64,000 nucleotides of DNA from Candidatus Heimdallarchaeota archaeon (lineage in GTDB: Archaea; Asgardarchaeota; Heimdallarchaeia; Heimdallarchaeales; Heimdallarchaeaceae): assembly GCA_018238545.1 (NCBI GenBank), contig JABCTC010000001.1:1-64000 (forward strand). The letters are read 5' to 3'. Below the pieces are notes generated by a model. The model ran no database searches. It was not told where the DNA came from and was given only the letters and a program-made list of their open reading frames with translations. The position numbers were made by a program, and so were the translations under genes. Positions 23,517 to 26,940 of the stretch are shown piece after piece. Each line of letters starts with the position of its first letter. Positions within the stretch are counted from its first letter, which is position 1.

Positions 23517-25625
23517 ATGCACAAAAACAAAAGTACAATGTTAACTTTTACATTACTTGTCATTGTTAGCATATCGTTTTCAGCTTTGCTGAATTCAACG
23601 CAGGGTTCCGCAGAAATGAGCCCTCAAACAGATCTATCGAATATTGTGAATAGTACCCCCCTCCTTACCTCAAGTGGTATGGTATACAGTGATGAAGGAT
23701 ACAATGATATCAGTGTCATCGACTATGGATTAAATGCAACAACTTCATTTAATAGAACAATTAACATAGAAAATTTTGGTGTGCTTTCAATCACGGATAG
23801 TATTAAATTAGATGTAATTGGTAATTTAAATTTGACCTATTTCAATTATACATTACCTAATATTCATACTGATAAAATATCATATGTTAGTTTTCGTGTT
23901 GCTAATGCCACTTATGAATCACTAATAGAAGGCAATGCTACTCGATCATATACATTTAACAAACTATTGAACTATACAACCTTCGTCATTCCTTTCAATG
24001 TAAATAAAACAGAAATTCACCAGAATGATGTTTATTTCATCAATTCTTATATTGAATTTTCTTTGCCGTATACTCACGAGCTTTACGCAGGAGAACAGAT
24101 TACTCATTACGAAGAGTTGTTGTATCCTCTTGTTAACGATATACCAATTGTTAATGGATCAGTCAAAGTTACAAAACAAGGTGGTGACCTATTTTTGGAC
24201 ATACCAGGATTTCCAATATCTCCAGGAAATAATACGGAAGGAATAACCGTCATCAATGACGCAGCAAGTGGTACTCTCAAATGGACAAACATTACGAGAT
24301 TACCCTTTAACTATAGTCAATCATATTCTGACGATCTTCTACTTAATGTACATATATCTTCAGTAAGTACCGCTGACATAGAACAACATGCAAGCACATT
24401 GTTGTTTAAAGCAACCGAGGTTCATAGAGTCGTAGAAATTGATCCTTATGGGTTAGTACAAATAACTGAAACACAGAATATCATTTTCTTGGGTGGTGAA
24501 AGACCTGAAGATTATGATTATTTCTCTCCAAAACTGTATGCTCTAAACGCATTTCCGATGGTGCTACCAAAAAACGCTACCGTCACTGATTTGTTCGATG
24601 AAACAGGATCCTTAAATCTAGAATACCAGTTAAACAAGGCAGGTTATTATGAAAAGGGCGCTTACAATTTAAGAGATAGTACATTTGAAGGGCACCAAGC
24701 TTTACTTATCTTTCCAAGAGAACCTCTTTTCCACGGAGAAGAAATGGAATTTACAATTGTATACACAGTTCCAATGGAAAGCATTCTAGAGAAAGAACAA
24801 GGAAGTACAAACTACAAACTCAAACTTTCTCCAAGCTCAATTGTGAATTGGAGCATAGACAAGTTAAATCTTGAAATAATTCTTCCCAAGGGAGCAATGT
24901 ATAAGGAAATTGTGTATGGAAATACAGATCCTTATCAAGATATGATAATTAATTATGGGAAAATCTTTGACTTCACAGCACTTGGAACAAAAAGAGTGGT
25001 AGGATTACAATTCACAAACTTCTCGGGAAGCGATAATGCATCAATAATCATAAAATATACTTATACTGGTTTTAACATGATTATCACAATTTTCTGGCAA
25101 TTTATGGCAGTGGGCATTATCTTTACCATATACCTTGGAATTCGTTGGTCAACAAAACAAGTAAAAGGACTTTCTGAAGCTGAGAAGAAGCAAGATTTCA
25201 TTCCTACAGATGAGATAGAAGAATTTGTAAAACAATATGAAGAAGTTCTAGCTATCAGAGAACGGCTCAGGCAGACCAAGGCGAAAATAGCAAGTAAGAA
25301 AATGAAAGCAAAAGAAGGTAAAGAATTACGTATTAAGCTAGAGAAACGTATGAGAGCCGAAGAAGTAACCTTGAAGGCATCAAAAATAAGTTTATCAGCT
25401 CTTGGTGGAAGATACAAGGAAGCTGTTCAGAAAATAGAAATTGCCGAAAGGAAACTCTACGAAGAAAGAAGAAATCTAAGAGCGCTTCAACAAGAATATA
25501 GAACTAAGAAAAGCATGACCAAAGAATCTTATGTTAAACTATTCCGCGAAAGACAACAAACCATAGAAAGACTCAAGAATGAGATTAATGGCCAGCTTGT
25601 AACTCTAAGATTATTATTAGAATAA
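23517..25625 (+). CDS. Ribophorin I (OST1)-like protein
   Basis: A 702-residue membrane protein that reads as a full-length relative of ribophorin I, a non-catalytic subunit of eukaryotic oligosaccharyltransferase. It has a signal peptide (about 1-32), a large extracytoplasmic region rich in N-x-S/T sites, one membrane span (about 518-544) and a cytosolic coiled-coil tail (545-702). Remembered human ribophorin I aligns by eye over the second half: HRVVEIDPYGLVQITE with TRVIEVSHWGNIAVEE, FPREPLFHG with RPRFPLFGG, LEIILPKGA with VKIILPEGA, then the span and the tail (MTKESYVKLFRERQ with LKKDTYIENEKLIS). The order of blocks is the same. The role in archaeal N-glycosylation is inferred. Confidence 0.8.
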   Translation: MHKNKSTMLTFTLLVIVSISFSALLNSTQGSAEMSPQTDLSNIVNSTPLLTSSGMVYSDEGYNDISVIDYGLNATTSFNRTINIENFGVLSITDSIKLDVIGNLNLTYFNYTLPNIHTDKISYVSFRVANATYESLIEGNATRSYTFNKLLNYTTFVIPFNVNKTEIHQNDVYFINSYIEFSLPYTHELYAGEQITHYEELLYPLVNDIPIVNGSVKVTKQGGDLFLDIPGFPISPGNNTEGITVINDAASGTLKWTNITRLPFNYSQSYSDDLLLNVHISSVSTADIEQHASTLLFKATEVHRVVEIDPYGLVQITETQNIIFLGGERPEDYDYFSPKLYALNAFPMVLPKNATVTDLFDETGSLNLEYQLNKAGYYEKGAYNLRDSTFEGHQALLIFPREPLFHGEEMEFTIVYTVPMESILEKEQGSTNYKLKLSPSSIVNWSIDKLNLEIILPKGAMYKEIVYGNTDPYQDMIINYGKIFDFTALGTKRVVGLQFTNFSGSDNASIIIKYTYTGFNMIITIFWQFMAVGIIFTIYLGIRWSTKQVKGLSEAEKKQDFIPTDEIEEFVKQYEEVLAIRERLRQTKAKIASKKMKAKEGKELRIKLEKRMRAEEVTLKASKISLSALGGRYKEAVQKIEIAERKLYEERRNLRALQQEYRTKKSMTKESYVKLFRERQQTIERLKNEINGQLVTLRLLLE

Positions 25626-25680: not shown

Positions 25681-25740
25681 CATTCCAAAAAGAATATAAA
25701 AACAAGATAGAACTTAACTTAACGGACAATAGTGTTGAAT

Positions 25741-26145
25741 ATGCATCTTGAAAGTGTTACTGAGAGTGCAAGTATCATCAAAAAAGAAGTTCCTGGCCTC
25801 TCAGATGTTGCAAAAGAACTAGCTTCAGTTCTCAAAAAAAGTAGATTTTTCCTAAATAAATTATTTGACATATGTAATAAAGAAGCGTATAGCATTGATT
25901 TAACACCTGAAGAACAAAATGAGATATCACTAAAAGTTGCATTAGTAACTGCTCCAGATCAAGTATTTCAATATGCTAGAATTGTCCAACTGGTATTTCA
26001 ACTAAATTACTTTTCTAAATGCTATGACAAAGCTTTGAAATCAAGCATACTACCAAGCGTTGTGAACAATGAAGCAAAAAACATGTTTAAAAAAATAGAA
26101 AAATTTCGCAATTTAATTGAGAAAGAGTATGTTTCAAGCATATAA
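25741..26145 (+). CDS. Small helical protein of unknown function
   Basis: A protein of about 134 residues that I do not recognise. It is predicted to be mostly helical and soluble: no signal peptide or membrane segment, with alternating charged and hydrophobic residues. It contains two cysteines. ATG 25741 or GTG 25732 could start it. A TATA-like element (aatataaaa, 25693-25701) lies upstream, so it has its own promoter. It follows the OST1-like gene and precedes a two-span membrane protein on the same strand. Confidence 0.6.
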   Translation: MHLESVTESASIIKKEVPGLSDVAKELASVLKKSRFFLNKLFDICNKEAYSIDLTPEEQNEISLKVALVTAPDQVFQYARIVQLVFQLNYFSKCYDKALKSSILPSVVNNEAKNMFKKIEKFRNLIEKEYVSSI

Positions 26146-26213: not shown

Positions 26214-26531
26214 ATGAATCAGAAAACTGGAAAAAACAAAAGAAATACATTTACTTCTTTAGATAGCGCAGCGGCTGTTCAACTCTTTATGATAATTGTG
26301 GTTATTATTGCCTATATTATGTTCTTAACTTTTCAAAGATATTTGTTCTCTTTTGAGGAGTTATTACCAAAGTTGATCATAGTTAATGTTTTACTAGTAG
26401 CAGGAATAGTGATGGAAATTAGCTATTTCATATGGACTATGCATAAGAAAAAGAAAAAATTAGAAGCTAAAGCTAAATTGCAAGAGGTAGAAACTGAGAA
26501 ATCAAAACAAGAAAAACAAAATGAAGAATAG
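26214..26531 (+). CDS. Small two-span membrane protein
   Basis: A 105-residue protein of unknown function. A basic N-terminus of about 20 residues is followed by two hydrophobic helices (about 22-46 and 53-75). A highly charged Lys/Glu-rich C-terminal tail from residue 76 probably forms a cytosolic coiled coil. The start is ATG. No family was recognised. It converges with the Trm112 gene, 16 bases away. Confidence 0.6.
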   Translation: MNQKTGKNKRNTFTSLDSAAAVQLFMIIVVIIAYIMFLTFQRYLFSFEELLPKLIIVNVLLVAGIVMEISYFIWTMHKKKKKLEAKAKLQEVETEKSKQEKQNEE

Positions 26532-26547: not shown

Positions 26548-26940
26548 TTATTTCTTCTTTCCATAAATTTCCTCAAGTTGCTCAGAGCTAAGCATAACTG
26601 GAATTCCTTCTTTAATCTCATAAAGATGTTTTTCATCTTTAGAGCAAAGTAGCCTACCTTTTTGTATTTCAATTTGGAAACATTCTTTGCAATCTTCAGC
26701 AGTTACACTCTTACAGATGATGTCTAAAGATTTCTCAACCTCAACTCCTTCATCATTAACATCGATAAGATAGAACTTTTTAAAATGACAATAGAAGTTG
26801 CATACAACACCAGTTTTTGAGTTTACATGAGGTGGAGAAATAGGTTCAACTTCTTTCTCTTGTTCAATAATTTCTAGTTCTAAAGGCCAATCTTTGTCAA
26901 GAGGGCAAGCTAATAAGTCCATCAACCTGTACTTCATCAT
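26548..26940 (-). CDS. Trm112-family methyltransferase activator
   Basis: A small zinc-finger-type protein (130 residues) that partners and stabilises SAM-dependent methyltransferases acting on tRNA, rRNA and release factors. MKYRLMDLLACPLDK at the N-terminus and GRLLCSKDEKHLYEIKEGIPVML at the C-terminus in outline are family hallmarks. The middle holds an inserted helical part, as in eukaryotic and archaeal forms. The cysteine pattern is incomplete next to the four-Cys zinc site (C12, C-x-E-C-F, C in LLC). It starts at ATG. Confidence 0.85.
   Translation of the reverse strand: MMKYRLMDLLACPLDKDWPLELEIIEQEKEVEPISPPHVNSKTGVVCNFYCHFKKFYLIDVNDEGVEVEKSLDIICKSVTAEDCKECFQIEIQKGRLLCSKDEKHLYEIKEGIPVMLSSEQLEEIYGKKK

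What the first reader, a model, noticed from the sequence alone, without database searches (positions are those of the whole stretch)
23517..25625. Full-length ribophorin I (OST1)-like protein in an archaeal genome
The order signal peptide, glycosylatable lumenal-type domain, single span and coiled-coil tail is that of eukaryotic ribophorin I. Short blocks match in the same order, including the post-span tail. Asgard archaea have been reported to carry ribophorin homologues. A copy with a recognisable cytosolic tail lets one ask whether archaeal OST has a multi-subunit form. It adjoins no AglB gene.
Basis: partly seen in the sequence, partly recalled or inferred. Interest (0 to 1): 0.85.

Follow-up and report, generated by a model that had tools for sequence, protein, structure and literature searches.

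The report
Heimdallarchaeal OST1 (ribophorin I) gene
A Heimdallarchaeal (Asgard archaeon) genome carries a genuine full-length relative of ribophorin I/OST1, a helper subunit of the eukaryotic protein-glycosylating machine that also touches the ribosome; such archaeal relatives were already known, so this is a clear but expected further member.

Summary
Window 23517-25625 (+) encodes a 702-aa protein with an N-terminal hydrophobic segment, a sequon-rich ectodomain, one membrane span and a 155-aa helical tail. It matches Pfam Ribophorin_I (4.2e-16, over the cut-off) across ectodomain 2 and the span. A profile of 21 Asgard homologues aligns with human OST1 almost end to end (1.4e-39, human residues 63-582), with yeast Ost1 (5.3e-27) and with the crystallised OST1 tail of the Lokiarchaeon MK-D1 (8.3e-29). 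The modelled tail is a four-helix bundle whose only significant PDB fold match is that structure (8WHN, TM 0.76/0.82). The ectodomain fold could not be modelled (shallow alignment). The same genome encodes STT3/AglB with the eukaryote-like double sequon and an OSTC-like subunit, on other contigs. The family is widespread in the phylum (106 of 196 genomes). Asgard OST1 was already reported, and the MK-D1 tail was crystallised and shown to bind human ribosomes in 2024 (PMC11417166, PMC10307638). This is a sound new member of a known kind. One useful extra: in a sister family of the same class, OST1 lies within about 10 kb of Sec61-alpha/SecY and an OST48-like gene.

The parts
23517..25625 (+). 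OST1/ribophorin I gene, 702 aa plus stop
23517..23606 (+). N-terminal hydrophobic segment (residues 7-25 core), probable signal peptide; cleavage site not predicted
   Evidence: hydropathy 2.17
23607..23735 (+). poorly conserved Ser/Thr/Asn-rich linker, residues about 31-73, shorter in OST1 of other Asgard classes
23736..24365 (+). ectodomain 1 (residues about 74-283), aligned with OST1 domain 1 only through family profiles and relatives
   Evidence: L012 matches PF04597 from position 4
24363..25139 (+). direct Pfam Ribophorin_I match: ectodomain 2 and membrane span (residues 283-541)
25080..25136 (+). single membrane span, residues 522-540
25158..25622 (+). cytosolic tail, residues 548-702, basic, four-helix bundle; like the ribosome-binding domain of MK-D1 OST1
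25732..26145 (+). 137-aa downstream ORF of unknown family, next to OST1 in the genus relatives examined and in one further genus; possible operon partner, role unknown

Best explanation
The gene encodes the Heimdallarchaeal orthologue of OST1 (ribophorin I). The protein is exported by its signal peptide, anchored by one span in the cell membrane with a sequon-rich ectodomain outside, and carries a basic four-helix bundle inside. Most likely it sits beside STT3/AglB and the Sec61 channel, where the tail touches the translating ribosome and the ectodomain helps present nascent chains to STT3 for N-glycosylation. Shown here: homology over the full length, topology signals, the tail fold, and the presence of STT3 and an OSTC-like subunit in the same genome. 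Inferred from relatives and published work: ribosome binding, complex formation with STT3 and Sec61, and the role in glycosylation.
For: PF04597 4.2e-16. Profile of 21 Asgard homologues: human OST1 1.4e-39 over human residues 63-582, MK-D1 OST1 tail 8.3e-29, yeast Ost1 5.3e-27. Genus-only profile still finds human OST1 at 6.5e-8, from ectodomain 2 into the tail. hhalign of the genus profile against OST1 of other Asgard classes: 547 columns, 99.9%, tail included. Tail model pLDDT 86.6; only PDB match below 0.001 is 8WHN. STT3 with WWDYG and NATTNKT double sequon; OSTC-like protein. Sister-family neighbourhood with Sec61-alpha/SecY and an OST48-like gene. MK-D1 OST1 tail binds human ribosomes (PMC11417166).
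Against: Ectodomain 1 has no direct Pfam match in this protein itself. The ectodomain fold was not resolved. In this genome the gene is not beside STT3 or Sec61. The genus-only profile matches 8WHN only weakly by sequence (0.061). No biochemical data exist for this protein.
Confidence: 0.93

Rival explanations
1. It is a homologue of OST1 by descent but in this lineage acts mainly as a ribosome or translocon receptor at the membrane, not as an OST subunit.
For: The tail is the best conserved part within the genus (106-119 of 157 residues identical in the roughly 56% relatives) and the MK-D1 tail binds ribosomes (PMC11417166). In a sister family the adjacent translocon gene is Sec61-alpha, not STT3.
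Against: STT3 with the eukaryote-type double sequon and an OSTC-like subunit are in the same genome, and an OST48-like gene is in the sister-family neighbourhood.
Confidence: 0.15
2. It is an S-layer or other glycosylated surface protein with a helical tail that only resembles OST1 by composition and layout.
For: Sequon-rich ectodomain; helical tails give weak tropomyosin matches.
Against: Specific PF04597 match far above cut-off; OST1 structures found at 1e-27 to 1e-39 against 0.013 for tropomyosin; the tail fold matches only OST1 significantly.
Confidence: 0.02
3. The gene is a eukaryotic contaminant in the assembly.
For: The family is best known from eukaryotes.
Against: The contig carries prokaryotic genes and the same gene order occurs in several Heimdallarchaeota MAGs; the family is found in all 18 same-genus genomes sampled.
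Confidence: 0.01

Closest known systems
OST1 (WP_147663064.1) of Candidatus Prometheoarchaeum syntrophicum MK-D1; tail structure PDB 8WHN (PMC11417166)
   Same: Signal peptide, ectodomain, one span, cytosolic four-helix bundle; tail fold TM 0.76/0.82; both Asgard archaea
   Different: 702 aa here; MK-D1 OST1 about 607 aa (its tail construct is residues 449-607); extra ectodomain loops here; about 20% identity in the tail; ribosome binding tested only for MK-D1
Human ribophorin I / OST1 (PDB 6S7O chain E, 8B6L)
   Same: Same domain order and end-to-end profile alignment
   Different: ER membrane in humans, cell membrane expected here; longer ectodomain here; OST48, DAD1 and ribophorin II partners not established in this genome
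Yeast Ost1 (PDB 6C26 chain 1)
   Same: Two lumenal domains and the span align with the family profile
   Different: Yeast Ost1 (476 aa) ends soon after its span and lacks the cytosolic bundle that this protein has

Membership tests
OST1 / ribophorin I (PF04597) | Profile match above the curated cut-off | tested here: met
   59.5 bits against cut-off 25, residues 283-541
OST1 / ribophorin I (PF04597) | Both lumenal domains represented in sequence | tested here: met
   By family profile, human residues 63-582, and by orthologue L012, Pfam positions 4-435; not by this sequence alone
OST1 / ribophorin I (PF04597) | Two-domain lumenal fold | tested here: inconclusive
   AlphaFold2 pLDDT 20-50 over the ectodomain with 7 sequences
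OST1 / ribophorin I (PF04597) | Signal peptide plus a single membrane span after the ectodomain | tested here: met
   Hydropathy peaks at 7-25 and 522-540 only; no dedicated signal-peptide predictor was run
OST1 / ribophorin I (PF04597) | Cytosolic four-helix bundle (human and Asgard forms) | tested here: met
   Tail model pLDDT 86.6; 8WHN E 3.4e-4, prob 1.00
OST1 / ribophorin I (PF04597) | Physical part of an STT3-containing complex | not testable with these tools
   Needs biochemistry; STT3 is present in the genome
OST1 / ribophorin I (PF04597) | Ribosome contact by the tail | not testable with these tools
   Shown for MK-D1 OST1 (PMC11417166), not for this protein

The most novel reading that the evidence does not exclude
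Heimdallarchaea assemble a multi-subunit OST (STT3, OST1, OSTC-like, OST48-like) docked on Sec61 and the ribosome at the cell membrane, encoded in part as a conserved OST48-like / OST1 / Sec61-alpha gene neighbourhood in one genus, so that the eukaryotic cotranslational OST-translocon arrangement predates the ER.
Probability: 0.5. Interest if true: 0.6.

Novelty: new member of a known kind. Interest (0 to 1): 0.28.

Why it matters
OST1 in Asgard archaea bears on how the cotranslational glycosylation machinery of the eukaryotic ER arose. This copy adds an intact, full-length member with its tail from Heimdallarchaea, and the related loci suggest that OST1, Sec61-alpha and an OST48-like protein can be genetically linked in archaea, before any ER. 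The existence of archaeal OST1 and ribosome binding by its tail are already published, so the gain is incremental.

Tried and rejected
Ost5 (PF05251) in the own genome: best 16.7 bits, under cut-off; the 90-aa candidate did not stand up as a gene on inspection, so rejected. DAD1 (PF02109): only a frame with stops. TRAP alpha and gamma: no match, but the controls were silent too, so absence is not shown. The neighbouring 105-aa ORF 26214-26531 gave many weak matches to unrelated membrane and charged-tail families, TRAP_alpha among them; treated as composition, not a TRAP subunit. Own-genome OST48 candidate (L064) is below cut-off and the GIFT fold is shared with IFT52 and ABC_transp_aux models, so left inconclusive although hhalign gave 96% against the sister-family proteins.

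Full report
Observation. The ORF at 23517-25625 (+) is as described: 702 aa from an ATG, hydrophobic peaks at residues 7-25 and 522-540 and nowhere else, and a charged tail of about 155 aa. The ectodomain (27-515) has 16 sequons where shuffles of the same residues give 6.0 +/- 2.1. The gene lies among MutS, MutL, DeoC-like, Trm112p-like, nucleotidyltransferase and S-adenosylmethionine synthetase genes; this is not a glycosylation operon, and the only STT3 found in the genome is on a different contig.

Identity. Pfam finds Ribophorin_I and nothing else significant (E = 4.2e-16, 59.5 bits against a cut-off of 25, residues 283-541). A single-sequence search of the PDB already puts human OST1 first and the MK-D1 OST1 tail second, though weakly (0.026 and 0.26). 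With 21 Asgard homologues as a profile the match becomes decisive and covers the protein: human OST1 1.4e-39 (human residues 63-582 of 607), MK-D1 OST1 tail 8.3e-29, yeast Ost1 5.3e-27, next unrelated hit tropomyosin at 0.013. To check that this is not carried only by other lineages in the profile, a profile of the genus alone was used: human OST1 6.5e-8 from ectodomain 2 into the tail, yeast Ost1 2.6e-4, MK-D1 tail 0.061; and the genus profile aligned with OST1 of other Asgard classes over 547 columns from residue 75 to the C-terminus (hhalign 99.9%, 3.2e-36). A same-genus orthologue, 56% identical, matches PF04597 from position 4 to 435, that is, both lumenal domains.

Structure. The tail alone gave pLDDT 86.6 with helices at about residues 564-592, 598-628, 631-664 and 669-699. 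Foldseek against the PDB returned one match below 0.001: 8WHN, the cytosolic domain of OST1 from MK-D1 (E 3.4e-4, probability 1.00, TM 0.76/0.82, rmsd 2.5, 20% identity). The lumenal fold remains untested.

Lineage and spread. Named relatives (55-90% identical) are all Candidatus Heimdallarchaeota MAGs, four of which keep the flanking gene order as far as their contigs reach. In the phylum 106 of 196 sampled genomes match PF04597, 101 over the cut-off, including every same-genus genome sampled. The proteins of this class are mostly about 680-720 aa against about 580-640 in most others; the excess lies in an N-terminal linker and several ectodomain loops.

Partners in the same genome. STT3/AglB (752 aa) carries WWDYG and the double-sequon stretch NATTNKT; a double sequon is noted in the literature as shared by eukaryotic Stt3 and Asgard/TACK AglB (PMC8993221). 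A 141-aa protein matches only the membrane part of OST3/OST6 and, in the PDB, human OSTC (5.5e-4), the subunit that in mammals links OST to Sec61 (established knowledge). A TRAP-beta-like protein (254 aa, 7.2e-10, over cut-off) is present, though that Pfam model also rings in other prokaryotes. An OST48-like GIFT protein about 3 kb from the OSTC-like gene is below cut-off and inconclusive. DAD1 and Ost5 were not found; TRAP alpha and gamma searches were uninformative.

Gene neighbourhood in relatives. In three genomes of another family of the same class (L053, L056, L060) OST1 is divergently adjacent to Sec61-alpha/SecY with its plug domain, and an OST48-like protein lies 4.2-4.5 kb away on the other side. 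The three OST1 proteins are only 51-54% identical to each other, so the order has persisted over real divergence, but the genomes belong to one genus, so this is one lineage's arrangement; and the OST48 Pfam match is shared with other GIFT-fold models. In the window's own genus OST1 is instead followed by a 137-aa protein of unknown family.

What is known. Ost1 and Ost3 had been reported in Asgard archaea before 2023; Ost4 and Ost5 in most Asgard classes and Ost2, Wbp1 and Swp1 in Heimdallarchaeia only were added then (PMC10307638). Ribophorin is listed among eukaryotic signature proteins found across Asgard phyla in the paper on complete Heimdallarchaeum genomes (PMC8813620). For MK-D1, the OST1 tail was crystallised and pulled down human ribosomes, while its ectodomain did not (PMC11417166). 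The finding is therefore correct and ordinary for this lineage: a new member of a known kind. I did not find the OST48-like/OST1/Sec61-alpha neighbourhood described in the papers searched, but that library lacks most subscription journals.

Noticed in passing
L053:1240-10851, L056:1488-11369, L060:1330-10972: In one genus of a sister family, an OST48-like GIFT protein, OST1 and Sec61-alpha/SecY lie within about 10 kb in the same order and orientation.
   Followed up: partly
L039:1408-1833 (G000:C86): Stand-alone 141-aa OST3/6 membrane-domain protein without thioredoxin domain, closest in the PDB to human OSTC.
   Followed up: partly
L064:976-2055 (G000:C86): 359-aa signal-peptide protein with one C-terminal span and a sub-threshold OST48_N match, about 3 kb from the OSTC-like gene.
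   Followed up: partly
L065:1390-2154 (G000:C48): TRAP-beta-like protein beside an ArsA/GET3-like ATPase gene (the latter judged by eye).
   Followed up: no
window 25732-26145: 137-aa protein of no known family that follows OST1 in genus relatives and in one further genus, and is nearby but inverted in another.
   Followed up: partly
window 26548-26940; L053:6139-6408: A Trm112p-like zinc protein lies near OST1 both here and in the sister family.
   Followed up: no
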